Origin: an uncultured Clostridia bacterium
GTDB taxonomy: Bacteria; Bacillota; Clostridia; Saccharofermentanales; Saccharofermentanaceae
Length of the DNA: 35,877 bases
NCBI GenBank assembly: GCA_947167045.1
Contig: CAMVGO010000023.1
Location: forward strand, 1-35,877
Direction: 5' to 3'
Shown: positions 7,714 to 22,270 of the stretch, in pieces
Position numbering within the stretch: the first letter of the stretch is position 1
Layout: each line of letters starts with the position of its first letter
Position numbers and translations under genes: made by a program
The notes under the pieces: model-generated
The model's database searches: none
What the model saw: the letters and a program-made list of their open reading frames with translations, nothing else
Told to the model about the DNA's origin: nothing

Positions 7714-7714
7714 A

Positions 7715-7917
7715 TCAAACATATCCTTTCCACACTCCTGAACTGTCGAATTCATTTTTCCTGCCGTCGATAGTCACGGTACCGGTAGCCATCTCACCGG
7801 AAGACTTAAGGTAATACCATTTGCTTCCCTGCTGCAGCCATCCAGTAGCCATCTTACCTGACTGCCCGAAATAATACCATTTTCCGCCTATGGACTGCCA
7901 GCCTGTGGCCATCTCAT
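7715..7917 (-). pseudogene. 3' fragment of a choline-binding protein gene
   Basis: About 65 codons survive, coding for three choline-binding repeats (GWQSIGGKWYYFGQSGKM, GWLQQGSKWYYLKSSGEM and a final IDGRKN... GVWKGYV). The signal peptide, N-terminal domain and at least five repeats expected from its paralogues are missing. Directly upstream of the first repeat (minus strand) the frame meets a TGA four codons before the ATG, and the sequence turns into intron-like RNA sequence. The stop codon lies one base before the ATG of the next choline-binding gene, so this end is also unusually tight. It is best read as the remnant of a deletion that joined an intron fragment to the middle of a choline-binding gene. 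Confidence 0.85.
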
Positions 7918-8144: not shown

Positions 8145-9734
8145 TTATTTTTTCTTCTTTGCCTTGGCAGGCTTGGGTGACTCTGTGTCTACGACTTTAC
8201 CTTCAGCAAGGTAGTGCTTGGCATCCTTGATAAAGCTTCCGACGATGAGGATCATTACGATTCCGATCGGGAATGCTGCGATGATGGATACCGTCTGGAG
8301 GTTAGCCATAGTACCTTCGGAGAAGATGAGAGCGATAGGAAGCAGGATGAGGAGGATTGCCCAGAAGAGCTTCATCTTCTTGCTTGCCATCTCGTCACCT
8401 TCAATGTTCTTGTAGCTGTAGTTGGAAGCTACCATCGTGATGCTGTCGAAAGATGTTGCATAGAAAGCGAACATTGCGAGAGCGAGAACAACGAGGAATA
8501 CGGGAGCCAAAGGCAGCTGGTGGATGATGTCGATGATCGTCTGATAGAGGTCGTCGCCGTTAGCGTGATACTGTGCAACTGCATCGAACTTGCCGTGTAC
8601 CTTCATGCCGAGACCGAAGTTTCCGAGTACGATGAACGAGATGAGCGTGCTTGCAGTACCGAAGATGTAAGACCCCATGATGACCTGCTTGATCGTTCTG
8701 CCTCTAGAGATCATGCCCATGAAGAAAGGCGCTGCAACGCACCATACCATCCAGTATGCCCAGTAGAAGATCGTCCAGTTCTGTGCAAAGCCTGCTTCGG
8801 TTCTTGTTGCGTCTGTCCATGTGGAGAGCGTGAAGAAGTTCTGTGTCATGTTACCTAAAGATGTAACACCTGTCTCAATGGAGAACCTTGCCTCACCGCC
8901 GAGGATGAATACGAAAGCGAGGAGGAAACCGAAGAGGATCATGCAGATCTTGGAGAGCATGTTTACGCCCTTAAGACCGTTCATTACTGATGTTGTGTAG
9001 ATACCGCATACGACAACGAGGATGCCGATGGAAACATACTTTGAAGCGGCAAGACCGAAGAGGTCTGTAAGAACGCTTGAGAGCAGAGGTGTGGCGATGG
9101 AGAATGTGGTAGCAGTACCAGCGATGAGAGCGATAACTGCGAGGATGTCGATGACCTTGCCCAAAGGACCGTCTGTGTGCTTACCGAGCAAAGGTCTGCA
9201 GGACTCTGAATACTTCTGCTTGTGGCAGCCTCTTACATGGAGCATGAATCCGAAGGCAGCTGCGAGAACTGCATAGAAGCTCCACGGTATCAGTGACCAG
9301 TGATAAAGAGGATATGTCGGAGCCCATTCGTTGATGTCGCCGAGTCCGATAACATGTGCATCTTCATAGTAGTAGATCCATTCGCAGAACGAATAGAAAA
9401 GGATATCTGATGCAAGACCGCAGGTGAACACCATCGCACCCCAGGAGAAGAACCCGTACTTAGGCTTTTCGCCGGGCTTGCCGATCGTGATGTTTCCGAT
9501 CTTGGAGAATGCGAGCCATAAAGAAACGAGGAAGAATCCCAAACCGACTATGAGATAGTAAACACCGCACTTATCGCCGAGGAAGCTTCTGATCACCTCA
9601 AGCGTAGCAGTCGAATTCTCAGGTGCGAGAATGAAATACGCACAAAGAATAAGAATGCATCCGAAAGGCACGAATGTTGTAAAAGGGTCTATCTTCCTTT
9701 TACTGACTGTCTTACTTACGTCATTTGTTGCCAT
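8145..9734 (-). CDS. BCCT-family choline/betaine/carnitine transporter
   Basis: 529 residues, ATG 9734 behind AAAGGAG. About twelve hydrophobic segments are visible between residues ~20 and 505, with a Lys-rich cytoplasmic tail (KPAKAKKKK). Family landmarks are present: FFSWGAMVFTCGLASDILFY (TM3-like Gly-rich segment), YHWSLIPWSFYAV, and the BCCT signature region QNWTIFYWAYWMVWCVAAPF with the W-T-x-F-Y-W core. BCCT proteins move quaternary ammonium compounds by Na+ or H+ symport or exchange. It is the third gene of the lic operon, 18 bp after licC, so choline import for phosphorylcholine synthesis is the natural role. It takes the place that LicB, a different permease family, has in pneumococcus and Haemophilus. 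Betaine or carnitine as substrate cannot be excluded from sequence. Confidence 0.9.
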   Translation of the reverse strand: MATNDVSKTVSKRKIDPFTTFVPFGCILILCAYFILAPENSTATLEVIRSFLGDKCGVYYLIVGLGFFLVSLWLAFSKIGNITIGKPGEKPKYGFFSWGAMVFTCGLASDILFYSFCEWIYYYEDAHVIGLGDINEWAPTYPLYHWSLIPWSFYAVLAAAFGFMLHVRGCHKQKYSESCRPLLGKHTDGPLGKVIDILAVIALIAGTATTFSIATPLLSSVLTDLFGLAASKYVSIGILVVVCGIYTTSVMNGLKGVNMLSKICMILFGFLLAFVFILGGEARFSIETGVTSLGNMTQNFFTLSTWTDATRTEAGFAQNWTIFYWAYWMVWCVAAPFFMGMISRGRTIKQVIMGSYIFGTASTLISFIVLGNFGLGMKVHGKFDAVAQYHANGDDLYQTIIDIIHQLPLAPVFLVVLALAMFAFYATSFDSITMVASNYSYKNIEGDEMASKKMKLFWAILLILLPIALIFSEGTMANLQTVSIIAAFPIGIVMILIVGSFIKDAKHYLAEGKVVDTESPKPAKAKKKK

Positions 9735-9752
9735 AACAACACTCCTTTAACT

Positions 9753-10478
9753 TCAATTATTTATTTTCAAATAATTTGAATCGATCTTCTGCAGTTCTTC
9801 CAAACTGTCTATTTCCATGATATCTTCGCTGTTCATTATCCTTATTCCGAGCTTGAACCTGTCGGGGTGAAGGAACATCGGGATATCGTCCCAGTAAACG
9901 TCTTTTCTTTGATTCTTCTCGAACTCAAGTTCCAGAAGTTCTTTCAGCGTACGGCCGTCTTCACTGCTCCATCTCGAAACGCTGAAGAGCTGCCATCCGT
10001 GTGATCCGCCGGTTCTCGAGCAGGACTTGACTATGCCGTCTTCGACCTGCATCAGCCACTCGTCCGTCTCACCTTCACACCAGATTGCGTTATATCCGGA
10101 AAGCGTGAAATGAGGATCCAGGATCTTTGTCTTGTTGATTATCTGGTCGCCGTCCAATATGATGCTGTCCTCTAAATGCTCTCTGGCCGCATATAAAGAA
10201 CTGATGTTGTTGCATGTATCGAAATAAGGGTTCTCGATGACCGTTACGCCATCCTTATCCTTTGCCCAGTCGTAGAACTGCTCCTTGAGATAACCTACGA
10301 CCACATATATCTCGTTGATGCCGTTGGCCTTGAGACCGTCAACGACGGAATCAATCATGCGGATACCGTTTACCTTTACGAGCGGCTTGGGCGTGGTAAG
10401 CGTCAGTGGGTGCATCCTGTTGCCCATACCTGCTGCCATTATCACGGCGCGTCTTACTGTATGCGTTACTTCAGACAC
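9753..10478 (-). CDS. licC: LicC-like phosphocholine cytidylyltransferase
   Basis: I choose GTG 10478 as start: GGGAGG lies seven bases upstream and the codon overlaps the TGA of the previous gene. The frame is open to 10562, but the upstream part is the other gene's coding sequence. 241 residues, close to pneumococcal LicC (~229). The nucleotidyltransferase signature AAGMGNRMHPLTLTTPKP is at ~15-32, followed by VVVGYLKEQFYDW, the metal-site region ILDGDQI, DEWLMQVEDG, DVYWDDIPMF and the C-terminal MEIDSLEELQKID, each with a counterpart at the same place in LicC. The reaction would be CTP + phosphocholine to CDP-choline + PPi in the cytosol, feeding LicD. It is the second gene of the lic operon and duplicates the cytidylyltransferase module of the fusion upstream. 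Confidence 0.9.
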   Translation of the reverse strand: MSEVTHTVRRAVIMAAGMGNRMHPLTLTTPKPLVKVNGIRMIDSVVDGLKANGINEIYVVVGYLKEQFYDWAKDKDGVTVIENPYFDTCNNISSLYAAREHLEDSIILDGDQIINKTKILDPHFTLSGYNAIWCEGETDEWLMQVEDGIVKSCSRTGGSHGWQLFSVSRWSSEDGRTLKELLELEFEKNQRKDVYWDDIPMFLHPDRFKLGIRIMNSEDIMEIDSLEELQKIDSNYLKINN

Positions 10479-12243
10479 CTTCAGGCCTCCCATCAATGAG
10501 TTCTTTCGCGAACCTGTAGTAATCCTTCGCGAATCTGTACTGGCGGAGGCTGTATTCGCCAAACTCTACTCCGAGCTTGCGCTTGAACTCACACCAGTTC
10601 GACCATAAGAAACCGCACATCGAGATGTAACAGTATATCTTTGCTCTTGTGGTGTTGTCGCACTTGTTATCGAAATAGATGTCGATCAGATGATCGCACT
10701 GCTGTTTGCTGTAAAGGCTGTAGATGCAGAACATCGCAATATCTACGTGCGGATCCTGCATTCCTGAATATTCCCAGTCAGTAAGCTGGAGCTTTTCTTC
10801 AGTCTCACCTTCAGGTGTATAGAAAAGGAAGTTATCCGGAACAGCATCGATATGTGTGAGGCACCAATTCTTATCCAGTCCGTCAACGAATTCCTTAAGC
10901 GACAGAACGTGCTTTTTCGTCTCCTCATAATCTTGGAAAACTGAAGGTGTTCCTTCCCACAAAGATTCATAGAAATCCATCTGACCAAAGATGTCGAATG
11001 TGTGCGATACCTGGATGTTCATCTCGTGGAACTCACGGAGCTTTGCCATGCAGAGCTTGAGATCGTCGTCATTCTCACAGTCGCATACGCGTACGTTATC
11101 GAGGAACTTCGTGATCTTATATCCGTTCTCGGGATTGATATATACCGGATCGTCGCAAAGACCGAGACCTGAGATCTTTGCAAAAACCTCAGCCTCCTGC
11201 TTGCGGTTGATGAGCTGGTCCGTGCCCTCACCCGGTATTCTCATTATGTACTTCTTGCCCTTAACGGTGAACAGGAATGACCTGTTTGTCATGCCCTTCT
11301 TCAGCACATTGATATCAACGATATCTTTCTCTTTGCATCCGAAGATCTCAGTGATAACGCTGATAGCATCGGACTTGAGATGATTGGAATTTGAATCGAA
11401 ATCCCTGAGCTGCTCATATGTGTTGATCTCGATCACTTCTTCGCAGCTTACGACTCTGGACTGAACGATCATGCGGTCCTTCTTGATGAGAGTCGTTTCC
11501 CAGAAATCATCAACGTGATCCTCGTCATCAAAATCCCTGAGGCCTTCTCTTACGATGCCTGACTCAGGTTCGAGAAGATAAGAGATGCCTACCATCTGGT
11601 TACCATCTTCCTTCTTTCCAACGGAAACGAGCTCCATCTTCCTGTTGACTCTTACGCTGCTTTCTTCCTCGATAAGGTCGCTTACCATATACCAGGAATA
11701 GAGCTCAACGCTGTCGAAAGGATTATCCCTGCACCAAAGATCGCTGGGAACAATGTATGTGTTATGGATCCTGTCAGCAACAAGGTTCAGTGTATGAAGA
11801 TTGTTCCTGGCAGCATAATCTCTGTTGATAACGAGATCTACGCCGAAATCGTCGATAAGGTATTCGAAGCTTTCCTTCATGAATCCGACTACTACGGTGA
11901 TATCCTTTATCCCAGCCTCATGAAGCTGTCTGATAAGACGCTCGATGAGCTTCTCGCCGTTTACTTCGAGTAACCCCTTAGGTGTCGAAAGGTTTATGGG
12001 AACCATACGCATACCGAATCCGGCAGCAAGGATGATGGCATTCTTGGGAGATCTGTCGAAGATCTCAGCTTCAGCCTTCTTTGTTAATCTTACATTATTA
12101 TCTAAATAGCCCTCAGCCGTGAGGTTCTTGATCGATCTGTTTATGACACCGAGTGAATGTCCTGTAACATCAGACAATACACGCTGGTTTACGAAAGGCT
12201 TTTTGAACAATGTTCGCAAAACATCTGCTTCCTGTATGTTCAT
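10471..12243 (-). CDS. HTH - LicC-like nucleotidyltransferase - LicA-like choline kinase fusion
   Basis: 590 residues from ATG 12243, which has AGGAG eight bases upstream (ATG 12249 is only two bases from it, so less likely). Residues ~1-62 form a winged-helix DNA-binding domain (QRVLSDVTGHSLGVINRSIK, then KKAEAEIF). Residues ~66-285 are a nucleotidyltransferase with AAGFGMRMVPINLSTPKG, VVVGFMKESFEYL and a PSDLW metal-site region; the usual DxD is reduced to one Asp. Residues ~290-580 are a LicA/aminoglycoside-kinase-like domain with KKYIMRIPGEGTD (ATP-loop Lys region), LTHIDAVPDN (catalytic HxDxxxxN) and LTDWEYSGMQDP (metal-binding Asp). It should phosphorylate choline and possibly make CDP-choline, perhaps sensing substrate to control its own operon. 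It is the first gene of the lic operon. Confidence 0.92.
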   Translation of the reverse strand: MNIQEADVLRTLFKKPFVNQRVLSDVTGHSLGVINRSIKNLTAEGYLDNNVRLTKKAEAEIFDRSPKNAIILAAGFGMRMVPINLSTPKGLLEVNGEKLIERLIRQLHEAGIKDITVVVGFMKESFEYLIDDFGVDLVINRDYAARNNLHTLNLVADRIHNTYIVPSDLWCRDNPFDSVELYSWYMVSDLIEEESSVRVNRKMELVSVGKKEDGNQMVGISYLLEPESGIVREGLRDFDDEDHVDDFWETTLIKKDRMIVQSRVVSCEEVIEINTYEQLRDFDSNSNHLKSDAISVITEIFGCKEKDIVDINVLKKGMTNRSFLFTVKGKKYIMRIPGEGTDQLINRKQEAEVFAKISGLGLCDDPVYINPENGYKITKFLDNVRVCDCENDDDLKLCMAKLREFHEMNIQVSHTFDIFGQMDFYESLWEGTPSVFQDYEETKKHVLSLKEFVDGLDKNWCLTHIDAVPDNFLFYTPEGETEEKLQLTDWEYSGMQDPHVDIAMFCIYSLYSKQQCDHLIDIYFDNKCDNTTRAKIYCYISMCGFLWSNWCEFKRKLGVEFGEYSLRQYRFAKDYYRFAKELIDGRPEGV

Positions 12244-12280
12244 AAACATCACTCCTTTCTGTTTTCGTGAACAGGACTGT

Positions 12281-12305
12281 CAAAAAATTAGGTCTTTTCA
12301 GACCT
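12281..12305 (-). promoter_or_regulatory. hairpin/operator in the lic operon leader
   Basis: A perfect 6-bp palindrome (AGGTCT at 12290-12295, AGACCT at 12300-12305, 4-nt loop) lies between the lic promoter and the first gene. On the minus strand it is followed by TAATTTTTTG, so it could act as a weak intrinsic terminator (attenuator). As a palindrome just downstream of the start site it could equally be the operator of the fused winged-helix protein. Sequence alone does not decide. Confidence 0.55.
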
Positions 12306-12311
12306 GAACAT

Positions 12312-12340
12312 ATGAAAACACTAAATGTAAATACTGTCAA
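12312..12340 (-). promoter_or_regulatory. promoter of the lic operon
   Basis: A perfect -35 TTGACA (12335-12340, minus strand) is followed after 17 bp by TTTCAT (12312-12317) as a weak -10. It lies about 70 bp upstream of the fusion gene's ATG. A second TTGTCA occurs just upstream near 12350. The inverted-repeat element at 12392-12633 ends about 50 bp further upstream. Confidence 0.65.
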
Positions 12341-12391
12341 GCATGAAATTTGACAAAATCAAACGGGTACACGTCACAATTAAGAAGAGAT

Positions 12392-12633
12392 AATTCGGCA
12401 AAGATTCGGCTATACCGCATTTTTGCAAGATTTTTCCAATTTATAGCTCGAAAAATGCGGCAAACATATCGGCACAGCCGCATTATTGCCGAATAAAATA
12501 AAGCCAGATTGCACCTGCAGGCTCTCCATCAAGGCACCGGCTCCGCCTTGCCTTCGGCAGCCTTGACCGATCGCCTTAGCAGGTGCTGTTTTGTGGTCAA
12601 GAGTTGGGTTACCCCAACTCTCATCTTACGATG
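12392..12633. repeat. left ~242-bp inverted repeat copy bounding the esterase cassette
   Basis: The sequence 12392-12633 reappears in reverse complement at 16243-16485. By eye about 85 percent of positions match, with the outer ~44 bp and inner ~45 bp nearly perfect. Internally it is a chain of hairpins: AATTCGGCAA paired with TTGCCGAAT (outer), GCACCTGC/GCAGGTGC enclosing TCAAGGC/GCCTTGA (middle), and AGAGTTGGG/CCCAACTCT (inner), ending CATCTTACGATG. No open frame is apparent. The rest of the 12250-12738 gap holds the lic promoter and the terminator at 12703. Confidence 0.92.
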
Positions 12634-12702
12634 AGTCAAAAGATTATATAGTAATTAATAAGTCAACCTGCTATTAATGTCTTACTTAGACCAAAAGCAA
12701 GA

Positions 12703-12730
12703 GGCCTGAGTTGTTCTCATAACTCAGGCC
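12703..12730 (-). terminator. terminator of the Pce-like gene
   Basis: GGCCTGAGTT (12703-12712) pairs perfectly with AACTCAGGCC (12721-12730) over an 8-nt loop. On the minus strand a T-rich stretch (TCTTGCTTTT) follows. It lies 8 bp past the stop codon of the 12739-15192 gene. Confidence 0.85.
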
Positions 12731-12738
12731 CCAATTAA

Positions 12739-15192
12739 TTATTCTACTAAATAACCTTCCTTATCGAATGTATAATCCTTACCGTCTATCCGCAACGTCT
12801 GGTTCTTTGCATACCAACCTGACGTATCCTTATAGTACCATCCTTTATCATCCTGCTTCCAACTTGCTCTATCTTTATAAGTCCATGTACCGTCACTGTT
12901 CAACCAGTATCCGTTAATGTACTCTTTTGAAGCCATGGAACCGCCGGGTCTTAAGTAATATGTCTTTCCATCTATTTGGTTCCAACCGGTTGCCATAACA
13001 CAGTCATCATAGAAGTAAAACCAGCTGCCATCGATCTTTTTCCATCCGGTAACTGCTTTACCATCAGACAAACAGTAATACCATTTTCCATCCGCTTTCT
13101 GCCATCCAGTATCCATATAACCGGAAGACGAGAAATGATACAACTCTCCATCGATCCACAAGACCTGATTAGCAGGATACCAGCCGATCTGATTCTGATA
13201 GTAACGGCCTTTGCTGTTCTCTAACCATTCCGATTGAGGTTTATATGACCATTTACCATCGAAAGACAGCCAATAACCTTCGCAGAATTCACTGATAGCC
13301 ATAGAGCCATTATCTCCGAAGAAATAGTACTCATTATTGATTTTTTTCCATCCGGTTGCCATATAACCTTCATCATCAAAGTAATACTGCTCATCATCTA
13401 TCCAAAGATACTTTTCTTTTGCATACGTACCGTCAGACTGCAGATATCGCCAGCCCTTTGAATCCTTTTTCCAACTGGCTTTAGTTTGATTTACCCATTT
13501 TCCACTATATTCAAGCTTATAACCATTAACATATTCTTCAGATGCCATAGAACCATCAGAATAGAAGAAATACCAAACACCATCTATTTTTTGCCACCCG
13601 GTTACCCTGTAGCCATCATTATTAAAGTAATACCAATAATTATCTATATACAACCACTGATCCTTCGCATACCAGCCTGAAGTATCCTGATAGTACCATC
13701 CATAAGGATCCTGCTTCCAACTGGCTCTTGCTTCATAAGTCCATGTGCCGTCAGGATTTAACCAATACCCATCACAGTACTCATTATTTGCTCTGGACCC
13801 GTCAGGTTTTAAGAAATACAATTTGCCATCGATCTTATTCCAGGAAGTAAGCATTAGATAATCATCACCTAAGTAATACTTCTTTCCTTTCCAATCTACC
13901 CAACCTTTTGCCAAATGACCTTCGTCATTAATAAATACATATTTTTTACTAATAAAGATATTATCCGGTGCAAAGCAATCCATTGCATCATACCAGGACA
14001 CAAAACAATTTTTCTCAATCTTTATATCCATGGTCTTGGTATTATCTTTAAAAGACAGACTCTTTCCATCTTCTTTTGCATCAACAAATGATATTTTCCC
14101 GTTGTCATCTATTACCTGAACAATCGCTTTACCAGCAGAATCTTTGGTGTAGTATACAGTTTTATTATTTTCTTTCATGTATAAACAGAATGCAGCAGAA
14201 TGCTTCGGATACTTCTCAGTATCAAAGTCAGAAGCTTGAATGACTGCATACTCAGGGTCCAGCGTATCTATCAAACGCTTGCTCGTCGCATTGGAAGATC
14301 CGTGATGAGCTATCTTAACGACCTTTAAATTGTTTTGCGCTTTATCCTTTAATACTTCACCGATCTTATTTTCAGCATCATAAGTAACATCTAAATCACC
14401 TAAAAGTGCCGTTCCAACCGTTTCCTTCTCTAAATATGTAACAATGGAATTCGAATTTTCACTGATTCCTGATATGCAATAAAGATTAAAAAGATATATA
14501 TCAAACGATTCAAATTTAAAGCTTATGTAATTCTTCAATTTGGGATCAACATCCAATTCAGCATTATTTGTAAAAATATAGCCACTAATACTATTGGTTG
14601 TATAATCATCCAGATCAGCAGAAGAAACTTTGCTGACATCAAAGAGTTTGGCACCGGCATTATACATAGCTTGTGTTGCATTAGAACAGCAATCCGCATT
14701 ATTCCAGTCTTCAACAACATCTTCCATCTGAATAGGTGTGTATTCTTTATAAAAATACACTGTATTATTATCAACCAGTTTATGACCATCAGAACTATCA
14801 GCGATCACCGGCATACCACCGATATGATCAGAATGGGAATGTGTTGCAATTACAAAATCCAGGTGTTTGACACCTAAATCCAACAGATACTGTCTTACTG
14901 CTACTCCGGTTTCAGACTCTGGAATACTTTCACCATCTTCATCATTATTATCATATGCGGCATCAACCAACCCGAAATGTCCGTTACTCTCGATAACGAT
15001 AGCATCGCAATTTTTAGTATCCTCATCATACAGTTTAAGATAATGGATCCTGTCATCAGTTGCCGTGGTTTTCCCGCCGATCTCTGGGGTTTCATAGTCT
15101 TCTTTATCTTTCAATGTCCCTGGAACATTCAACGTAAAGATATTACCGAGAGGAATAAGAACAGCAAACAAGAGTGCAACGAACTTCAACAT
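12739..15192 (-). CDS. Pce/CbpE-like metallo-beta-lactamase-fold, choline-binding protein
   Basis: 817 residues, ATG 15192 with GAGGTGA upstream. The N-terminus is a signal peptide or uncleaved anchor (1-25). Residues ~45-380 are a metallo-beta-lactamase-fold hydrolase: THSHSDHIGG carries the HxHxDH zinc motif (H118, H120, D122, H123), and ENSNSIVTYL, ALLGDLD and KIAHHGSSNATSKRLI supply later metal and fold landmarks. These sit in the same order as in pneumococcal Pce (CbpE), which removes phosphorylcholine from teichoic acid, though the fold is also shared with ComEC-like hydrolases. From ~400 there are choline-binding repeats interleaved with three or more GYWLNSDGTWTY / GWYYKDTSGWYAKN modules. 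The DNA is visibly more A+T-rich than its neighbours, and with the 15292-16095 gene it lies between inverted repeats. Confidence 0.88.
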   Translation of the reverse strand: MLKFVALLFAVLIPLGNIFTLNVPGTLKDKEDYETPEIGGKTTATDDRIHYLKLYDEDTKNCDAIVIESNGHFGLVDAAYDNNDEDGESIPESETGVAVRQYLLDLGVKHLDFVIATHSHSDHIGGMPVIADSSDGHKLVDNNTVYFYKEYTPIQMEDVVEDWNNADCCSNATQAMYNAGAKLFDVSKVSSADLDDYTTNSISGYIFTNNAELDVDPKLKNYISFKFESFDIYLFNLYCISGISENSNSIVTYLEKETVGTALLGDLDVTYDAENKIGEVLKDKAQNNLKVVKIAHHGSSNATSKRLIDTLDPEYAVIQASDFDTEKYPKHSAAFCLYMKENNKTVYYTKDSAGKAIVQVIDDNGKISFVDAKEDGKSLSFKDNTKTMDIKIEKNCFVSWYDAMDCFAPDNIFISKKYVFINDEGHLAKGWVDWKGKKYYLGDDYLMLTSWNKIDGKLYFLKPDGSRANNEYCDGYWLNPDGTWTYEARASWKQDPYGWYYQDTSGWYAKDQWLYIDNYWYYFNNDGYRVTGWQKIDGVWYFFYSDGSMASEEYVNGYKLEYSGKWVNQTKASWKKDSKGWRYLQSDGTYAKEKYLWIDDEQYYFDDEGYMATGWKKINNEYYFFGDNGSMAISEFCEGYWLSFDGKWSYKPQSEWLENSKGRYYQNQIGWYPANQVLWIDGELYHFSSSGYMDTGWQKADGKWYYCLSDGKAVTGWKKIDGSWFYFYDDCVMATGWNQIDGKTYYLRPGGSMASKEYINGYWLNSDGTWTYKDRASWKQDDKGWYYKDTSGWYAKNQTLRIDGKDYTFDKEGYLVE

Positions 15193-15291
15193 ATTGTCAC
15201 CTCAGCCCTCAAATTAATTTAACATAAAAATTATAGGGAAATGACAATAAACAAGCAAGCACAAATAGCGATATATCTTAACACATACAGC

Positions 15292-16095
15292 TCATACAGC
15301 CTGTGATTTGCTGTCCCAGATCAATGCACTATCAGGGATCATGTCATCAAAAGCAGACAATATCTGACTTATGACATAATCAGCATCGAAGTTCTTTTTA
15401 TCATATAGGATTATATATATTACTTCACGGCCCGGTCTGTATCGTTCTTTAGAGAACCCGAGTATCTTGGTTGCGGTCTTTATCGAATAATCGATCTTCT
15501 CACTCATCCCCAATATCTCGACATAAGAACATCTGTCGATCTCATAGAAATTTACGAGATAATCAGGATCGATAGTTTCCTCTATTGAAGGAAGATATAA
15601 CTCGGTTTCATATTTAAACGGTATATCCATCAGCTTCAACAAGTCAGCAGTCATCTGTTCATTCTTCGACTTCAGATCACCATGTTCACTGACTGTCGGT
15701 GTTTTTGGAACATAGGATCCGCATTTGTCCTGACGGCTTTGAAAATATGCATTATTCATTTTATGCGGATCAAAGAACTGTACTATAGGAAAGTTTACTT
15801 TAGGCGGAGCAAATTTATATTTTGAGTTCCATTCTTGCAGAAGCATGTCATATTCAGCTTTGAGTTTAAAATAACTGTTAATGCCATCTACATACTTCTG
15901 TCCGAGCTTAGAAGAAACACTTAGTATTCGTGGACGTCTGGATGTGTACCTTTCCTCATCAGGATCATAAGTAATAACGACCTTATTTGTTCCTTTCTTT
16001 ACACAGAAATACCCATGAGGCAGTTCCTGAAGTTTAAGTCTTCTGTATTCAAGTTTTACTGCATGAACCTTCATAGGAAAAACAATATCTTTCAT
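15292..16095 (-). CDS. PD-(D/E)XK nuclease-like protein of unknown role
   Basis: 267 residues, ATG 16095 with AGGAAAGGAG upstream. No signal peptide or membrane segment. The N-terminal ~140 residues are basic and unrecognised (GYFCVKKGTNKVVITY, FAPPKVNFPIVQFF). Residues ~142-240 match the layout of PD-(D/E)XK-type domains seen in many Clostridia: SKNEQMTADLL (E146), DIPFKYETELYL, DPDYLVNF (D178), YVEILGMSEK (E193) and a late KTATKILGFS. The usual Lys of the ExK motif is replaced (EIL), as in the WEHLG-type variants, so nuclease activity is unproven. It lies 99 bp upstream of the Pce-like gene, in the same A+T-rich cassette and on the same strand. A link to cassette mobility is only a guess. 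Confidence 0.8.
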   Translation of the reverse strand: MKDIVFPMKVHAVKLEYRRLKLQELPHGYFCVKKGTNKVVITYDPDEERYTSRRPRILSVSSKLGQKYVDGINSYFKLKAEYDMLLQEWNSKYKFAPPKVNFPIVQFFDPHKMNNAYFQSRQDKCGSYVPKTPTVSEHGDLKSKNEQMTADLLKLMDIPFKYETELYLPSIEETIDPDYLVNFYEIDRCSYVEILGMSEKIDYSIKTATKILGFSKERYRPGREVIYIILYDKKNFDADYVISQILSAFDDMIPDSALIWDSKSQAV

Positions 16096-16187
16096 ATATA
16101 AAACTCCTTTCCTAAGATTGGGATTTCATTATACGAACCTGATTATTGTTTGTGTGGACTATTTGCTCCAAATGAAGAAAAAGGGCC

Positions 16188-16232
16188 GAAAATTGAGACT
16201 ATACGAAGGTCGTGAGACTAGTCTCAATTTTC
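16188..16232. promoter_or_regulatory. perfect 14-bp inverted repeat upstream of the nuclease-like gene
   Basis: GAAAATTGAGACTA (16188-16201) is repeated in reverse complement at 16219-16232 with 17 bp between. It lies about 92 bp upstream of the ATG at 16095 and 10 bp inside the right inverted-repeat element. It has no T-run, so it could be an operator or recombination site. The left end of the cassette has no equivalent. Confidence 0.6.
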
Positions 16233-16242
16233 TTGCAACATG

Positions 16243-16485
16243 CATCGTAAGATGAGAGTTGGGGTAACCCAACTCTTGACCACAAAACTGCACCTGCAAA
16301 GGCGATCGGTCAAGGCTGCCGGAGGCAAGGCGAAGCCGATGCCTTGACGGAGAAGCCTGCAGGTGCTATCTGCCCTCATTTTATTCGGCAAAGATAAGGC
16401 CGTGCCGAATCATTTGCCGTATTTTTCGCACATTAAATCATAAAAATCTTGCAAAAATGCGGCATAGCCGAATCTTTGCCGAATT
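16243..16485. repeat. right ~242-bp inverted repeat copy bounding the esterase cassette
   Basis: Reverse-complement partner of 12392-12633, with the same nested hairpins (GCACCTGC...GCAGGTGC, AGAGTTGGG...CCCAACTCT) and the same outer end (CTTTGCCGAATT). The copies point toward each other with CATCGTAAGATG innermost. It fills the 16096-16560 gap together with the 14-bp inverted repeat and the rmlA terminator. No target-site duplication is apparent at the outer edges. Confidence 0.92.
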
Positions 16486-16508
16486 TTTATTCATATCTGT
16501 CTATTAAC

Positions 16509-16539
16509 AAAAGAGTTGCGACAATGCCGCAACTCTTTT
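16509..16539 (-). terminator. terminator of the polysaccharide operon
   Basis: AAAAGAGTTGCG (16509-16520) pairs perfectly with CGCAACTCTTTT (16528-16539) across a 7-nt loop. It begins 21 bp past the rmlA stop codon. The symmetric A/T tails would allow it to work in both directions. Confidence 0.85.
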
Positions 16540-16560
16540 GCAATAACTTATTCTTTTATA

Positions 16561-17445
16561 TCAATACTTAACTTTACCTTCAGCCACAGCTCTCAGGTGC
16601 TCACCATAGGGGCTTTTGCCGTATGCCTTTGCGGATTCCATGAGCTTGTCCTTGTCGATAAAGCCGTTGATGTATGCGATCTCTTCGGGTGCACTGATCG
16701 TGATGCCCTGACGGTTCTGGACCATCTCGACAAACTCTGCTGCCTGGAGAAGACTCTGCATCGTGCCGGTGTCGAGCCATGCGAATCCTCTGCCCAAGAG
16801 CTGGACATCTAAAAGGCCGTCACTGAGATACATGTCGTTAAGAGTCGTAATCTCGTATTCGCCTCTTGCAGAAGGCTTAACCTGCTTTGCCATGTCGCTT
16901 ACGCCTGCAGGATAGAAATAAAGGCCTGTGACAGCATAGTTTGACTTGGGGACTGCAGGCTTTTCCTCAATACTCAGAGCCTTGCCGTTCTCATCGAACT
17001 CAACAACACCGAATCTCTCCGGATCGGGAACGTAATAGCCGAATACAGTTGCTCTTCCGGCTTCAGCATTTGCAACAGCGGCCTTGAGCATAGTCCTGAA
17101 ACCGTTGCCGTAGAAGATGTTGTCACCCAATACCATTGCGCCTGCTTCGCCAGCAAGGAATTCCTCGCCTAATGTGAAAGCCTGTGCAAGTCCGTCAGGA
17201 CTGGGCTGAACCTTATAAGACAAAGAGATGCCGAACTGTGATCCGTCACCCAGGAGCGCTTCAAATCTTGGAGTATCGACGGGTGTGCTTATTATGAGGA
17301 TCTCTTTTATTCCCGCCAGCATGAGTGTGGACAAGGGATAGTAGATCATGGGCTTGTCGTAGATCGGAAGGAGCTGCTTGGATGTTACCTTCGTGAGCGG
17401 GTAGAGCCTTGTGCCTGAACCGCCTGCCAAAATGATTCCCTTCAT
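16561..17445 (-). CDS. rmlA: glucose-1-phosphate thymidylyltransferase
   Basis: Start set at ATG 17445 ([18 protein letters not shown]) with GGAGG nine bases upstream; the open frame further upstream belongs to the preceding gene. 294 residues, the family's usual length. The signature [32 protein letters not shown], the catalytic-site [27 protein letters not shown] and FAWLDTGT are all present. It joins dTTP and glucose-1-phosphate to dTDP-glucose, the first step to dTDP-L-rhamnose. It is the last gene of the operon, 4 bp after the sulfotransferase-like gene. RmlC and RmlD are just upstream, but RmlB (the 4,6-dehydratase) is not in this window. Confidence 0.97.
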
Positions 17446-17449
17446 TTGA

Positions 17450-18478
17450 TTAACCTCCGTTCTTTGCAAATGCGTCAAAGTCGTATAAGTATTCTTTCAG
17501 TTCAGATTCTATGTATCTGATGTCTTCTTCGCAGCCGGGATAACGGCTGACGAGATTTGTGTTTTTGATCGATCTGGAAGGATCGAAGATCGTCTTCGGA
17601 TTAACGTGATGAGATGCATCTATTCCTGCAAAGTCGCAGAGTATCTGCTTGGTCTCATCGTACTTGTAGATCATGTCCTCGAAATTGATCCTCAATACCC
17701 TGCTGTGGTCTTCATCGACAGGATGACTGTACTTTCTCGTGATCTTAAACCACTCGACGTATTCCTTTACATCCTTGACGGGAAGCACGCCCCACTTCCA
17801 CTCGTATTTCTCGAGAAGGAAGATGTCTCTGGGATCTCTTTCCGTAGCGATTATCTTGCAGTCGTCGAAATATCTTAAGAAACGCTTCGTGTTAGTCGGC
17901 GGGACCATCTGGTCTACCATGACATAAGGAAGCTTGTTCTTGTTGGCAAAAGAAAGCAGCCTGTCGACGTATTTCCTTACGGCCTTGAGGAAGGTTTCTT
18001 CGTCAACTGCGGAATAGTAAGCAAGTTCGCGGTCTGTAAGAAGCGAATATCGGATCTCTGTCTTGAGCTCGTTCTTAAAGAGTCTCTTGAAGAACGAATA
18101 GACACGGTCGATAAAGCAGAACAACTGGCCGCGGTCTAAACGGTCCTTGTTCCACCATGTCTTTGCCTTGAGTTCGGTAATGTCATCGATGAATTCCTCA
18201 GTTGCCTTTTCGAATTCGTCTTCGAAGATGTCGTATCCGCCGTAGCCCAGTTTCTTCTGTGTGGCGGCGAATCTTATATATCTCTTTATCGCGTCACTCG
18301 TGTTATGTCTGTTGTTATTCTCTACTACGTTGTATTCCAGATCCGCGATCCCGTCAGGATCGTGCAGGAAACGGTATTCGTATTCACCGAGTGAAAAGAC
18401 GTTATCGAACTCCGAGAAGAAGTTCGTAACGGCTGAAGATCCGGTGCCGTAATAACTTGTGCAAGAAATAACCCTCAT
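17450..18478 (-). CDS. sulfotransferase-family protein
   Basis: 342 residues, ATG 18478. The N-terminus reads [20 protein letters not shown], a sulfotransferase-type 5'-phosphosulfate loop. The 3'-phosphate-binding region follows at [19 protein letters not shown], and the typical late segment [19 protein letters not shown] with CDFAGI. This layout is that of PAPS-dependent sulfotransferases; the internal Arg- and Trp-rich region is not one I recognise. No signal or membrane segment, so it would act in the cytosol on a sugar or lipid-linked precursor. It is inserted between rmlC and rmlA in the dTDP-rhamnose block, with 4 bp to rmlA. A sulfated rhamnose polymer is one reading. Members of the fold with other substrates exist, so the substrate is open. 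Confidence 0.75.
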
Positions 18479-18501
18479 TTATTCCCACTCCTAAACGATC
18501 G

Positions 18502-19068
18502 TCAGAGCCACTTGGCAGCCCAGGAGAAATCCTGATCCTTGAACGATTCGTGCTTCTCGTCTTTTTCGCTCGTCTTGTATTCACAGTCGAGTTTCGGCCA
18601 TTCTACATTAATCGACGCGTCATTCCAAGGAATGCCGCCCTCTGACTTCGGATCGTATACGTCAGTGCACTTATAGACGAACTCCGCAGTGTCCGAAAGC
18701 ACGAGGAATCCGTGCGCGAAACCTTCAGGGATATAGAACATGTTCTTCTTCTCGGAACTGAGCGTTACGCCAACCCACTGGCCAAAAGTCTCGGAACCCG
18801 GTCTTACGTCGACAGCGACGTCAAAGACCTCACCGTGGGTTACTCTTACGAGCTTGCCCTGCGTGTGGTCCTTCTGGAAATGAAGTCCTCTCAAAACGCC
18901 CTTTGTGGAAGAGCTCTCGTTATCCTGGACGAACTCCTTGTCGATGCCTGCAGCGGCATAATCGCCCTTCTTGTATGTCTCCATGAAGTATCCCCTGCTG
19001 TCGCCGAACACCTGGGGCTGGATGATTATTACTCCCGGAAGTCTTGTTTTCTCGAATGTGAATGCCAT
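18502..19068 (-). CDS. rmlC: dTDP-4-dehydrorhamnose 3,5-epimerase
   Basis: 188 residues, ATG 19068 overlapping the rmlD stop by one base (TAATG), so translation is probably coupled. Cupin-fold landmarks are GDSRGYFMETYKKGDY, the catalytic-base segment GVLRGLHFQKDHTQGKLVR, VFDVAVDVRPGSETFGQW and IPEGFAHGFLVLSD, with YKCTDVYDPKSEGGIPWND near the end. It epimerises dTDP-4-keto-6-deoxyglucose at C3 and C5. Length and motif order are standard. Confidence 0.97.
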   Translation of the reverse strand: MAFTFEKTRLPGVIIIQPQVFGDSRGYFMETYKKGDYAAAGIDKEFVQDNESSSTKGVLRGLHFQKDHTQGKLVRVTHGEVFDVAVDVRPGSETFGQWVGVTLSSEKKNMFYIPEGFAHGFLVLSDTAEFVYKCTDVYDPKSEGGIPWNDASINVEWPKLDCEYKTSEKDEKHESFKDQDFSWAAKWL

Positions 19069-19982
19069 TATAATTCTGCCTCCTGCAAATATCTCTTTAC
19101 CGCGTCTTTCCAGTCCGGCAAAGGTGTGAAGCCGCTTTCCGCGAGCTTTGATTTATCGAGTCTTGAATTGAACGGTCTTGCCGCCTTGGACAGGCCGTAC
19201 TCTGCAGTAGTTACGGGGATTACATTTGTGGCAAGCCCGTACTGCTTATAGAACTCAACACAGAAATCGTACCATGAGATGTAGCCGCCCTCATTTGTCG
19301 CGTGGTAGTAACCGTACCTGTCGGTCTCTATCATGTCCACAAGGAGCCTCGAAAGATCGAGCGTGTATGTGGGCGTGCCGATCTGGTCGTTTACGACTCT
19401 TACCGTGTCGTGAGTCTTGCCGACGTTGATCATGGTCTTTATGAAGTTCTTGCCGTTAAGACCGAAAACCCAGGCTATACGGACGATGAAAAACTTTTCC
19501 AGAGTCGTTGATACCGCAAGTTCTCCGTCGAGCTTGCTCTGACCGTATACGTTGAGCGGAGCATAGCACTTATCATCGGGTTCCCAGGGACGTTCTCCCT
19601 GCCCGTCGAAAACATAGTCCGTGGAGATATAGAGCATCTTGCAGTCGATCTCTTTGGCAGCTTCCGCAATATAGCGGGTTCCCTCTGCATTGATCTTGTG
19701 AACCTTTTCCCTGTTCTCCTCATCTTCAGCTGCATCAACGGCAGTCCATGCGGCGCAGTGGATTATTGCATCGGGCCTTATCTCTTCTATTGCGGCTTTT
19801 ACCGCATCCTTATCTGTTATGTCGAGCTGGACATAAGGTGCCGCGGTTACCGCACTGCCGTCCGCAACGCCTGAATAAACGGGCTGGATATCTGATCCGA
19901 CTGCTTCTATTTCTCTTGCAACTGCGTTGTTTACGACATCGTGTCCCAGTTGTCCGCATACGCCTGTAACGAAAATCTTCAT
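19068..19982 (-). CDS. rmlD: dTDP-4-dehydrorhamnose reductase
   Basis: 304 residues, ATG 19982. An extended SDR with the nucleotide-binding start MKIFVTGVCGQLGHDVVN, IIHCAAWTAVDAAEDEEN, the catalytic ISTDYVFDG and the YGQSKLDGE (YxxxK) motif, then RIAWVFGLNGKNFIKTM and GTPTYTLDL. It reduces the 4-keto sugar to dTDP-L-rhamnose with NAD(P)H. It lies 18 bp after licD and overlaps rmlC by one base. Confidence 0.97.
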   Translation of the reverse strand: MKIFVTGVCGQLGHDVVNNAVAREIEAVGSDIQPVYSGVADGSAVTAAPYVQLDITDKDAVKAAIEEIRPDAIIHCAAWTAVDAAEDEENREKVHKINAEGTRYIAEAAKEIDCKMLYISTDYVFDGQGERPWEPDDKCYAPLNVYGQSKLDGELAVSTTLEKFFIVRIAWVFGLNGKNFIKTMINVGKTHDTVRVVNDQIGTPTYTLDLSRLLVDMIETDRYGYYHATNEGGYISWYDFCVEFYKQYGLATNVIPVTTAEYGLSKAARPFNSRLDKSKLAESGFTPLPDWKDAVKRYLQEAEL

Positions 19983-20000
19983 GTTATCTCTCCTGCTCTT

Positions 20001-20825
20001 TTATGCTCTTCTCTCATCGTAATATGCAATCTTCTCGATGGAGTGCTGGTCTCTCTTATCCTTAGGCGGGAGATCGGTGTAATTGCCGTATATGGCCTTA
20101 CATACTTCTTCCGGATTGTTCGGACCCATAACGGTAAGGCCTTCGAATTGAATGCTCTTCAAAGGGAAAACGCAATCTGAAGGGATCTCATGATGCCACC
20201 AGCAGGCTTCGTAACCTTCGGTAAGCACTTTCTTTCCTTTGAAAAGGCTTATGAACTTAAATAACGGAATAAGGAAATACCGGCACAATCCGTAAGTGAA
20301 CGAAGACATGAAATTATTCTTTCCGAGATACATATTCTCATTGCGCCAGGTGATCTTATGGATAATGTGCTTTAAGCTCTTGCTGACACCAAATCCGTAT
20401 TGGAAAAGATCTATCTGAAGGCCTCTGTATTTTCTCTGATTGTGGACATATTCATCCTTGATATATTCGGACTTAAGATCACGTAATACTGCACACTGTC
20501 TGACAAAGCCCTTGTCATTCTTGTGTGTCTGGACAACAAAATCGTAATCGCCCGCATTAACGATCTTGGCAAGTCTGTTGATGTCACGTGCAGACAGAAA
20601 AACATCGATATCGTCATCCCAGGGGATGTATCCGCCGTGTCTTACGGCACCTAAGATAGTACCGTCTCCGATGAAATACTCTATCTTGTTTTCCCTGCAT
20701 ATCCTGTCAAGGAACTCGAGCATCTCGAGCATCCTGAGCTGTGCCCTGCGAAGGTCGCTGCCTTCAGGATTATATTCAGCCTTTAAGCTTTCGTCTGTCT
20801 CGCCTGTGTTATAAACCCGACTCAT
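20001..20825 (-). CDS. licD: LicD-family phosphocholine transferase
   Basis: 274 residues, ATG 20825 overlapping the wzx stop by 4 bp (ATGA). The LicD core is clear: YFIGDGTILGAVRHGGYIPWDDDIDVFL (metal-binding DDDID at ~70-74) and GLQIDLFQYG in the middle, with the C-terminal IYGNYTDLPPKDKRDQHS matching the family's YGDYMxLPP end. LicD moves phosphocholine from CDP-choline to a sugar of teichoic acid or polysaccharide at the inner membrane face. The lic operon at 12243-8145 would supply its donor. Placement between the flippase and the rhamnose genes implies that the polysaccharide unit made by this operon is the acceptor. Other LicD-fold members use other phospho-groups, so choline is strongly suggested by context but not shown by sequence. 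Confidence 0.9.
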   Translation of the reverse strand: MSRVYNTGETDESLKAEYNPEGSDLRRAQLRMLEMLEFLDRICRENKIEYFIGDGTILGAVRHGGYIPWDDDIDVFLSARDINRLAKIVNAGDYDFVVQTHKNDKGFVRQCAVLRDLKSEYIKDEYVHNQRKYRGLQIDLFQYGFGVSKSLKHIIHKITWRNENMYLGKNNFMSSFTYGLCRYFLIPLFKFISLFKGKKVLTEGYEACWWHHEIPSDCVFPLKSIQFEGLTVMGPNNPEEVCKAIYGNYTDLPPKDKRDQHSIEKIAYYDERRA

Positions 20826-22270
20826 TTTTTCTTTCCTTTGTTCTTAATTATTTCGATAACTTCTTTTCTGTAAAATACAAACAAGATCAACAGGTAATAT
20901 ACGATACAGAGTGCCACGGAAATTATCAACCCGAGCACTGCACCGCTTATTGCGTTGTTGATCCAATAGCAGATCCCGAAAATACCTGCACCGCCCAATG
21001 CACTGACACCGATCGGTTTCAATAATCCTTTGTAGTGTTTGTCTCTCGTCCAGAACCAGCCGAGTGCCACCATCAGCGTTTCTGCTATAAGTGTCGTAAC
21101 AGCAGCGGCATTCTCTGCGAAAAACGGGATAAATATGATGTTCAGGATAAGGTTTACCGCCGCACTTATGATCGTTGCGATCATGACCTGCTTTTCCATA
21201 CGGAGCGGGATCATGACTATGTTGATGAAGAAATTCGCGAGGAGCGCCGGAATAAGAGCAAACGCCAGGATCATGAGCGATGACTCCGCCCTCATGTATT
21301 CAGGCTTTGAGAAAACAAGGATAAGATTCTTTCTAATCATGACAAGACCTATGGCAGCAGGAACTGCGGCAATTATCGTAAAGTGCAGCACTTTCTCAAG
21401 ATGCGCCTGTGACTTTTTTCCGTCCTTTGCGATCTCATGGGAAATCCTGGGTATGAGCACGAGGAAAGCCGCAGCCACTACCTGCTTTATGAGCATATAG
21501 AACTTGACCGAAACTCCGTAGTAACCGACTACATCATTATCAAAGAAAATACCCAGAACTGTTACGTCTGAGTTGATATAGATGAACGTACCGATCGTGC
21601 ATGCAAAAAGATAAGCGATCGACTTGATGTGCTTTTTCAGCTCGTCGTTGATGACTATCCTGGGTGAGATACCATAGCTCTTTTTGATGTGGAATCTGTT
21701 TATGATGTTCGGAACGATGAATCCGAATGACGATACGAACGCATAAGCGACAACATCATCAGGATCCCTGACTATAATGAACAGTAGAACGACTGCCAAA
21801 GACTGGCAGACGATGTATCTTATCGTAACGAAAAGATAATCCTCAAAAGCTGTGTTGATCCAGTCCGCACCGAAGGTCGTAAAGATGACCTGCAGGCTCA
21901 GCATGAAGATTACCGGCGCATAGAAATGGAGTTTAGTCCAAAAGAGGACTAACAGCGCAAGTACCACAAACGCAAAAACGGTCGTGATCACATTGATCGT
22001 GAAGAGTTCGTTTACGAGCTTCTGGCACTTGAGCTTGTCATCCCTTACCCTGGCGCTCTCCCTTACCGCATAGCGGAGAATGCCCGCTGCGGCAAGATAC
22101 GAGATATAACTTATGATCGATGCGCTGAAAGTATAGATACCGTAATTATCAACGCCCAATGTCTTTAATGCATAAGGAAAAGTGATCATGGGGAAAAGGA
22201 TCGCCATGACTTCCTTGATACCGTTTAACACGGCGTTGAGCTTTACCGACTTTACAGTCTTACCTTCCAT
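20822..22270 (-). CDS. wzx: Wzx-type polysaccharide flippase
   Basis: 482 residues, ATG 22270. About 12-14 hydrophobic segments run through the protein, starting LNAVLNGIKEVMAILFPMITFPYALKTLG... (given here in part), a typical RfbX/Wzx opening with NYGIYTFSASIISY. Internal charged loops (ESARVRDDKLKCQK, PRISHEIAKDGKKSQAHLEK) fit the MOP flippase family. It should flip the undecaprenyl-diphosphate-linked repeat unit outward. It follows a GT2 gene by 4 bp and overlaps licD. Wzy lies two genes upstream, giving a Wzx/Wzy pathway. Confidence 0.9.
   Translation of the reverse strand: MEGKTVKSVKLNAVLNGIKEVMAILFPMITFPYALKTLGVDNYGIYTFSASIISYISYLAAAGILRYAVRESARVRDDKLKCQKLVNELFTINVITTVFAFVVLALLVLFWTKLHFYAPVIFMLSLQVIFTTFGADWINTAFEDYLFVTIRYIVCQSLAVVLLFIIVRDPDDVVAYAFVSSFGFIVPNIINRFHIKKSYGISPRIVINDELKKHIKSIAYLFACTIGTFIYINSDVTVLGIFFDNDVVGYYGVSVKFYMLIKQVVAAAFLVLIPRISHEIAKDGKKSQAHLEKVLHFTIIAAVPAAIGLVMIRKNLILVFSKPEYMRAESSLMILAFALIPALLANFFINIVMIPLRMEKQVMIATIISAAVNLILNIIFIPFFAENAAAVTTLIAETLMVALGWFWTRDKHYKGLLKPIGVSALGGAGIFGICYWINNAISGAVLGLIISVALCIVYYLLILFVFYRKEVIEIIKNKGKKK

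What the first reader, a model, noticed from the sequence alone, without database searches (positions are those of the whole stretch)
8145..20825. Complete import-write-read-erase phosphorylcholine system outside the classic lic layout
Within ~20 kb the window has a BCCT importer, a LicA-type kinase, two LicC-type cytidylyltransferases, LicD inside a Wzx/Wzy polysaccharide operon, at least five choline-binding proteins (1381-7713 and 12739-15192) and a Pce-like esterase. Single parts are known from pneumococcus (established knowledge). Their grouping in one stretch of a clostridial-type genome with a BCCT transporter in place of LicB suggests a self-contained PCho capsule module, with proteins that dock on it and one that may strip it.
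Basis: partly seen in the sequence, partly recalled or inferred. Interest (0 to 1): 0.8.

Follow-up and report, generated by a model that had tools for sequence, protein, structure and literature searches.

The report
Self-regulating choline-decoration gene cassette
This bacterial genome, probably from the rumen, carries a gene cassette predicted to take up choline and help attach phosphorylcholine to the cell surface, where at least 59 of its own proteins with choline-binding repeats would dock; the predicted choline kinase is fused to a predicted DNA-binding domain, and its gene begins at paired palindrome-like sites through which it likely switches itself off.

Summary
In detail: the window encodes a BCCT transporter, a stand-alone LicC, an HTH-LicC-LicA fusion, a LicD in a Wzx/Wzy operon, six choline-binding proteins, one of them with a Pce-like hydrolase domain. 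The conserved unit is the cassette fusion > LicC > BCCT: 18 of 115 genomes of the family have fusion or BCCT, 16 both; of 80 named loci BCCT is in 63, LicC in 61. Capsule, LicD and Pce are not fixed parts: no LicD found in 7 of 18 carriers; the nearest relative has the same capsule operon without LicD; a strong Pce match in 2 of 115. Choline-type repeats track the cassette (3 or more copies: 12 of 18 carriers, 4 of 97 others); this genome holds at least 59 such ORFs. New here: the fusion has NadR-like architecture (HTH + nucleotidyltransferase + kinase), and a 12-bp palindrome of the TGTTCRYGAACA type sits at its gene start, in some loci paired 24-25 bp apart, as in the window. Most likely a PCho surface-decoration system run by a self-repressing kinase; PCho, enzyme activities and repression are untested.

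The parts
1381..2436 (-). choline-binding protein (6 strict GW-x6-WY repeats)
   Evidence: Choline_bind_1/3 above cut-off; repeat count
2791..4443 (-). leucine-rich (BspA-type LRR_5) choline-binding protein
4540..5523 (-). choline-binding protein
5570..6550 (-). choline-binding protein
6670..7755 (-). choline-binding protein
8145..9734 (-). BCCT transporter, predicted choline importer; Asp110 and three Trp conserved in cassette BCCTs
9753..10493 (-). stand-alone LicC, predicted CTP:phosphocholine cytidylyltransferase
   Evidence: 1jyk E 2.4e-33; both choline-selectivity Asp present
10471..12243 (-). HTH - LicC-like nucleotidyltransferase - LicA choline kinase fusion (start most likely ATG at 12243-12241; ORF listed to 12252)
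12262..12273 (-). upstream palindrome-like site TGTTCACGAAAA, just before the ribosome-binding site
12237..12248 (-). second palindrome-like site TGTTTATGAACA, over the start codon, 25 bp from the first
12701..12732 (-). terminator-like hairpin (12 pairs) between the Pce-like gene and the cassette
12739..15192 (-). Pce-like metallo-hydrolase with C-terminal choline-binding repeats
16561..17478 (-). RmlA-like gene (name by inspection, not scanned)
18502..19982 (-). RmlC- and RmlD-like genes (names by inspection, not scanned)
20001..20825 (-). LicD family protein, candidate PCho transferase
   Evidence: PF04991; tree
20822..22270 (-). Wzx-type flippase
   Evidence: PF01943
23176..24450 (-). Wzy-type polymerase
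   Evidence: PF04932
24474..30339 (-). glycosyltransferases, Stealth protein and initiating sugar transferase of the polysaccharide operon

Best explanation
The window encodes a three-gene cassette (HTH-LicC-LicA fusion, LicC, BCCT) predicted to import choline, phosphorylate it and activate it to CDP-choline, so that a LicD-type enzyme likely puts phosphorylcholine (PCho) on a surface polysaccharide on which the cell's choline-binding proteins would dock and from which a Pce-like hydrolase likely strips it. The BCCT would bring choline in; the LicA domain would phosphorylate it; the stand-alone LicC, which here has both choline-selectivity aspartates, would make CDP-choline. In this species the best-supported writer is the LicD inside the Wzx/Wzy operon, but the acceptor polymer is not proven. 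The first enzyme likely also works as the switch: its N-terminal winged helix would bind the two 12-bp palindrome-like sites that bracket its own ribosome-binding site, the second over the start codon, 25 bp apart, and repress the cassette in response to choline, PCho or CDP-choline, as NadR does for NAD. Shown here: gene content, conservation, co-occurrence, residues, the palindromes. Inferred: all activities, PCho on the surface, repression and its signal.
Against: No chemistry: I found no report of PCho in this genus. 6 of 18 carriers have no strict choline repeat and 7 of 18 no LicD found. Six more genomes (G013, G024, G030, G031, G046, G052) have full-length fusion relatives of only 30-35% identity and no BCCT match; I did not count them as carriers. 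G055 has 250 strict repeats but no close fusion or BCCT found (76% complete). The K-type control pattern is also somewhat commoner in carriers (13 of 18 against 41 of 97, p 0.02). The co-occurrence test is not corrected for kinship. One search kept only LicC genes scoring like the window's; of 21 further LicC- or fusion-like genes near a fusion that it dropped, none has the Asp105/Asp192 pair (Ser, Gly or Cys; mostly Glu), and these include the LicC-like genes of L162, L165 and G060, so the Asp pair is not general. The nearest relative's capsule operon lacks LicD, and this genome has three other LicDs in tandem at C2. Half of the start-codon palindrome is also coding; no DNA binding was tested. 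BCCT's closest solved relative is DddT (a DMSP transporter, recalled).
Confidence: 0.7

Rival explanations
1. PCho goes mainly onto a teichoic-acid-like polymer made by TagF-like and YidC-sulfatase proteins, not onto the capsule; the capsule operon beside the cassette is a recent or incidental neighbour.
For: YidC-sulfatase genes lie in the fetched cassette stretch of 8 of 18 carriers (G010, G011, G053, G060, G063, G069, G070, G076), and G035 has a TagF-like neighbour. In G011 and G063 a LicD with IspD-type and epimerase-like genes lies next to that array (Pfam scanned for G063 only). G008 has 252 strict repeats and no LicD in its capsule operon. G000 has its own TagF-like/YidC-sulfatase array at C19.
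Against: YidC-sulfatase is in 97 of 115 genomes, most of them without the cassette. Identity to the G063 copy is 51-59% in G010, G011, G079, G069 and also in the non-carrier G058, and 48% or less in other genomes as listed, cassette-side copies of G053, G070 and G076 included. LicDs beside IspD-type genes may carry a polyol phosphate, not PCho (inference). The window's own LicD type recurs with the cassette in other families.
Confidence: 0.3
2. The HTH and the palindrome are unrelated to feedback: the fusion is an ordinary two-activity enzyme with a vestigial HTH, and some other regulator binds the palindrome.
For: No binding data; the catalytic Lys and Arg of the fused nucleotidyltransferase are kept in 92 of 93 fusions, so that domain may well be active; 47 of 89 fusions have no strictly upstream site with at most one mismatch.
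Against: Exact sites are nearly confined to the fusion's own start (3 elsewhere in 1.30 Mb; 1 in 342 kb of this genome, the cassette's own). In G053 the nucleotidyltransferase motif is changed (Lys to Ala, Arg to Lys) while kinase motif, HTH and an exact palindrome remain.
Confidence: 0.27
3. The cassette makes CDP-choline for membrane phosphatidylcholine rather than for a surface polymer.
For: The LicDs scanned match only the Mf1 lipid cholinephosphotransferase model in NCBIfam, all below its cut-off (61.9 to 97.7 of 225 bits, 10 of 10 proteins); six carriers have no strict choline repeat.
Against: Association with choline-binding repeats and polysaccharide genes; no lipid phosphotransferase among the 20 window proteins scanned with Pfam. 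Lipid synthases elsewhere in the genome were not searched.
Confidence: 0.09
4. The LicC-like enzymes activate 2-aminoethylphosphonate (PntC), not PCho.
For: PEP mutase family matches are in 16 of the 19 genomes searched (11 of 14 control genomes match too, and the Ppm motif was not checked); in G060 one lies 7 kb from the fusion. The fused domain has Glu at the Asp192 position, as PntC does.
Against: No match in this genome (79% complete); phosphonate needs no choline-type kinase or importer; the window's stand-alone LicC has the choline-type Asp pair.
Confidence: 0.04
5. The repeats are cell-wall or glucan/CROP-type modules that do not bind choline.
For: The best-scoring PDB chains by total bits are clostridial toxin CROP regions, which are long and repetitive.
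Against: The repeats carry the W of the GW-x6-WYYF type, rare outside carriers, whereas the K type is spread widely; CbpF, CbpJ, LytA and Pce modules also match. That this W marks choline binding is recalled.
Confidence: 0.07

Closest known systems
Lic-1 pathway (licABCD) of Haemophilus, pneumococcus, commensal Neisseria
   Same: choline kinase, PCho cytidylyltransferase and LicD logic
   Different: BCCT in the LicB place; kinase fused to HTH and a second, altered nucleotidyltransferase; LicD outside the cassette. A 2023 survey of 26 PCho-expressing species (PMC10434233; abstract, outline, passages and part 1 of 7 read) names LicB as the importer; its species table lists no Lachnospiraceae or Saccharofermentans, and 'BetT' does not occur in its text.
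Erysipelothrix rhusiopathiae PCho capsule with SpaA and other choline-binding proteins
   Same: PCho-bearing capsule thought to anchor choline-binding proteins (PMC7083082 passages; table of PMC10434233)
   Different: here a Pce-like enzyme lies beside the cassette, the genome has at least 59 choline-binding ORFs, and the fusion gene has the palindromes; the Erysipelothrix genome was not compared here and a capsule acceptor is not proven
Pce/CbpE of pneumococcus
   Same: metallo-beta-lactamase fold, HxHxDH, GDLD and HH motifs, C-terminal choline-binding repeats
   Different: about 24% identity; activity untested
NadR of Enterobacterales
   Same: HTH + nucleotidyltransferase + kinase in one chain; NadR represses NAD genes (PMC12421817 passages)
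   Different: other substrates and other catalytic domain families (LicC/LicA type here); the palindromes sit at its own cassette; repression not shown
PntC phosphonate cytidylyltransferases
   Same: LicC-like domain; in G060 an HTH-LicC-like gene lies near a PEP mutase match
   Different: no kinase or BCCT; AEP substrate (PMC6697681 passages)

Membership tests
Lic-1 pathway | LicA choline kinase with choline pocket | tested here: met
   PF01633 67.4 bits (cut-off 29); 7 of 8 pocket residues present
Lic-1 pathway | LicB permease in the operon | tested here: not met
   BCCT sits in its place; LicB elsewhere in the genome was not searched
Lic-1 pathway | LicC with choline-type selectivity residues | tested here: met
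   window's stand-alone LicC has both Asp; the fused domain has Pro and Glu, and 21 other LicC-like genes near fusions in related loci lack the pair
Lic-1 pathway | LicD that transfers PCho | not testable with these tools
   family match met; substrate unknown; no LicD found in 7 of 18 carriers
Choline-binding proteins | Choline_bind_1/3 repeats above cut-off with GW...WY pattern | tested here: met
Choline-binding proteins | binding to choline | not testable with these tools
   needs protein
Pce/CbpE | fold and metal-ligand motifs of Pce | tested here: met
Pce/CbpE | phosphorylcholine esterase activity | not testable with these tools
   needs enzyme assay
BCCT | family model above cut-off | tested here: met
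   TIGR00842 414.6 against 407.55; PF02028 425.2 against 27
BCCT | choline as substrate | not testable with these tools
   Asp at the BetT position in 79 of 79; that this Asp marks choline transport is recalled
NadR-type trigger enzyme (works like) | HTH, nucleotidyltransferase and kinase in one chain | tested here: met
   NadR layout from PMC12421817 passages
NadR-type trigger enzyme (works like) | binds operators of its own pathway | tested here: inconclusive
   palindromes found at its own start; binding not tested
NadR family (member of) | homology to NadR | tested here: inconclusive
   NadR is not among the 25 of 29 NCBIfam matches shown

The most novel reading that the evidence does not exclude
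The HTH-LicC-LicA fusion is a trigger enzyme: the kinase of the pathway is also its repressor, its nucleotidyltransferase domain has turned from catalyst into a PCho or CDP-choline sensor, and it shuts off choline import and activation by gripping palindromes at its own ribosome-binding site and start codon. Thousands of gut bacteria would then gate PCho decoration, and in species like this one an anchoring system for dozens of surface proteins, by one NadR-like protein.
Probability: 0.35. Interest if true: 0.8.

Novelty: new variant of a known kind. Interest (0 to 1): 0.64.

Why it matters
PCho on bacteria is a host-mimicking antigen known mostly from airway pathogens. A widespread cassette in gut and rumen Firmicutes would give a genetic source of PCho in commensals, make its loss testable gene by gene, and tie it to an anchoring scheme in which dozens of surface proteins depend on choline supply. 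A kinase that represses its own pathway would be another natural case of the HTH-nucleotidyltransferase-kinase design known from NadR.

Tried and rejected
Unknown gene 15292-16095: no Pfam or NCBIfam match, model poor (mean pLDDT 52.7); left open. Literature, open-licence PMC only: BCCT with licC and phosphorylcholine, 0 papers; three of choline-binding, phosphocholine, Lachnospiraceae, licD, 14 papers, by their titles streptococcal, review or phosphonate papers; choline kinase, BCCT, cytidylyltransferase and gut, 0; phosphorylcholine, choline-binding proteins, Firmicutes, teichoic, 4; Saccharofermentans with choline-binding, 0; licA, licC and Lachnospiraceae, 0; Erysipelothrix terms, 40 papers, 15 listed; YidC with sulfatase domain, lipoteichoic acid synthase and fusion, 0; trigger enzyme/NadR terms, 27, 8 listed; choline kinase and PCho cytidylyltransferase with helix-turn-helix or autorepression, 1 paper, unrelated by its title. 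I considered calling the fused LicC domain dead because Asn stands for Asp at one metal position in 84 of 93; dropped, because a related enzyme (GlmU, recalled) uses Asn there, and Lys and Arg are kept in 92 of 93. No Pce-like gene was found in the flanks held for the 80 named loci. A quick tree of the fusion (90 rows) has families interspersed, which suggests but does not prove transfer. On rechecking I found that one search had left out 21 weaker LicC-like genes; I lowered the best explanation from 0.72 to 0.70 and the novel case from 0.40 to 0.35 for it.
Full report
What is in the window. The window is the whole contig C23 of a 79% complete, 104-contig genome. The genes named here lie on the - strand. 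Read in that direction: a polysaccharide operon with sugar transferases, Wzy, Wzx, LicD and RmlD/C/A-like genes; a gene without family (15292-16095); a metallo-hydrolase with choline-binding repeats; then the cassette fusion > LicC > BCCT; then five choline-binding proteins. Fusion and LicC overlap by about 23 bases; 18 bases separate LicC and BCCT. A 12-pair terminator-like hairpin lies between the hydrolase gene and the cassette.

The cassette is the conserved unit. Among 115 genomes of the family, a fusion of 53% identity or more is in 17, a BCCT match in 17, both in 16 (Fisher p 2e-17, uncorrected for kinship). G016 has BCCT and a LicC cut by its contig end; in G079 the fusion is cut by its contig end. 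Six further genomes have full-length relatives of 30-35% identity without a BCCT match; I left them out of the carriers. Record titles include Lachnospiraceae, Oscillospiraceae, Erysipelotrichaceae, Coriobacteriales, Treponema and Streptococcus porci. At least 7,995 database proteins match the fusion at E 1e-30 or better (candidate cap reached).

Residues. In the LicA part the choline-contact residues reported for pneumococcal LicA (PMC4364537 passages) are present at 7 of 8 places. Six of these are unchanged in every one of 93 fusions that has a letter there, Val178 is kept in 85 of 93, and Glu213 is Tyr in all 93. The window-type stand-alone LicC has the two aspartates reported to give room for PCho (PMC6697681 passages) in 60 of 64 and 61 of 63 rows. 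The fused domain does not: Pro in 92 and Gln in 1 of 93, and Glu in 93 of 93; its catalytic Lys and Arg are kept in 92 of 93. So in the window the two LicC-like domains are not duplicates. Against a general rule: one search kept only genes scoring like the window's LicC. Of 21 other LicC- or fusion-like genes near a fusion that it dropped, none has the pair (Ser, Gly or Cys at the first place; 16 Glu at the second); they include the LicC-like genes of L162, L165 and G060. Either those enzymes manage without the pair or they do something else. BCCT has the Asp that BetT has at the same place in 79 of 79. Four rows in each set are second copies of one contig.

The palindrome. K-mers upstream of 89 fusion genes pointed to GTTCACGAAA (11 of 89, at most 4 in shuffles) and its reverse. 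The element is TGTTCRYGAACA. In the region around the start 20 of 89 have it exactly and 47 with at most one mismatch; shuffles give 0.0 and 0.3, random places in the same loci 0.8 and 1.9. Because ATG/GTG AAC is coding, I counted again strictly upstream of the start, allowing A or C at position 11: 42 of 89 with at most one mismatch, shuffles 0.28 on average (largest 2 of 50). The 10 neighbouring pairs in that scan were 24 or 25 bp apart; L134 has one pair 60 bp apart outside it. Exact sites elsewhere in the same loci: 3 in 1.30 Mb on one strand. After clustering fusions at 70% identity, 38 of 65 with at most one mismatch, shuffles 0.37; this count includes sites over the start codon. In the window one exact copy of the A-or-C form (12262-12273) precedes the ribosome-binding site and a one-mismatch copy (12237-12248) covers the start codon, 25 bp apart; the whole window has 5 matches with at most one mismatch, counting both strands, against 1.6 expected. 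In 342 kb of this genome the exact form was found once, at the cassette, so I see no sign that choline-binding genes share it. In G053 the fused nucleotidyltransferase has Ala for Lys and Lys for Arg, but the kinase motif and an exact palindrome remain. Together with NadR's layout (PMC12421817 passages) this suggests an enzyme that represses its own cassette; binding is untested.

Readers. The DNA pattern for GW-x6-WY[YF] occurs 201 times in this genome, 252 in G008, 250 in G055, and in 20 of 115 genomes at all. Three or more copies: 12 of 18 carriers, 4 of 97 others (p 4e-9); 20 or more: 9 of 18 and 1 of 97. The same pattern with Lys in place of Trp is in 54 of 115: 13 of 18 carriers and 41 of 97 others (p 0.02). 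Against a strict link: six carriers have none, and G055 has 250 with no close fusion or BCCT found (76% complete). In stretches holding 188 of the 201 copies I count 59 choline-binding ORFs, a few cut by stretch ends; leucine-rich, CAP and InlB-type partner domains appear in the four from outside the window that I scanned. Pneumococcus has roughly 10-16 (recalled).

Writer and acceptor. LicD does not track the cassette: 78 of 115 genomes have it, and none was found in 7 of 18 carriers, of which G035, G053 and G079 are 68-85% complete. G008, the nearest relative, has the same operon without LicD, and its LicDs lie on other contigs. Its C32 LicDs lie near a PEP mutase match; three in tandem on C1 correspond by position to three on C2 here and to three in G055. 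On the other side, the window's LicD groups 100/100 with two LicDs, up to 56% identical, from other families that lie about 7 kb from a cassette in the order LicD - choline-binding proteins - fusion - LicC-like - BCCT; one of them has a Wzx end before it. The LicDs from outside the genus in that 32-row tree were all taken from cassette loci, which biases this comparison. In 8 of 18 carriers YidC-sulfatase genes lie beside the cassette. I therefore keep the capsule as the likely acceptor here, and a teichoic-acid-like polymer as the main rival.

Known or new. PCho surface systems, choline-binding proteins, Pce and BCCT are known kinds, and a PCho capsule thought to anchor choline-binding proteins is known in Erysipelothrix. 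The ten searches listed under Tried and rejected showed me no paper on this cassette in open-licence PMC; that is not proof of absence. New to me are the cassette's make-up and spread, the residue split between the window's two LicC-like domains, and the palindromes at the fusion's start.

Noticed in passing
window 15292-16095: Protein without Pfam or NCBIfam match, kept near the cassette in G008, G064 and G071 (62-71% identity).
   Followed up: partly
window 17450-18478: Weak sulfotransferase-like protein (below cut-off) overlapping the listed start of the RmlA-like gene; relatives in G008, G071 and five named cassette loci.
   Followed up: no
window 25470-26465: Stealth protein (CR1-CR3 above cut-off) in the polysaccharide operon, a likely sugar-phosphate transferase.
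   Followed up: no
window 31277-33112: Protein with a GGDEF motif between two sugar-transferase genes (read by eye).
   Followed up: no
window 3-1280: Leucine-rich (BspA-like, by eye) secreted protein cut by the contig end; no choline-binding repeat in the part present (by eye).
   Followed up: no
L080 12967-15723; G000:C19:7452-19963: YidC (60KD_IMP) fused to a sulfatase domain, in arrays with TagF-like proteins; matches in 97 of 115 genomes of the family.
   Followed up: partly
L078 14520-15425: HTH fused to a LicC-like domain without a kinase, in a stretch of G060 with a PEP mutase match: perhaps a self-regulating phosphonate version of the same design.
   Followed up: partly
L162 9753-10631; L165 9753-10631; L078 6240-7154: A longer LicC-like type (about 290 aa) next to some fusions that lacks the choline-selectivity Asp pair.
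   Followed up: partly
L225 4872-7535; L223 6174-8840; L227; L228: LicD clade linked to IspD-type cytidylyltransferase and epimerase genes (Pfam scanned in L225), so LicD here may also transfer a polyol phosphate.
   Followed up: partly
G055: 250 strict choline repeats but no cassette found; the genome is 76% complete, so a gap may explain it.
   Followed up: no
L165 2449-2460; L100 6805-6816: Exact palindromes away from the fusion start in two loci, with no gene start found within 400 bases downstream.
   Followed up: partly
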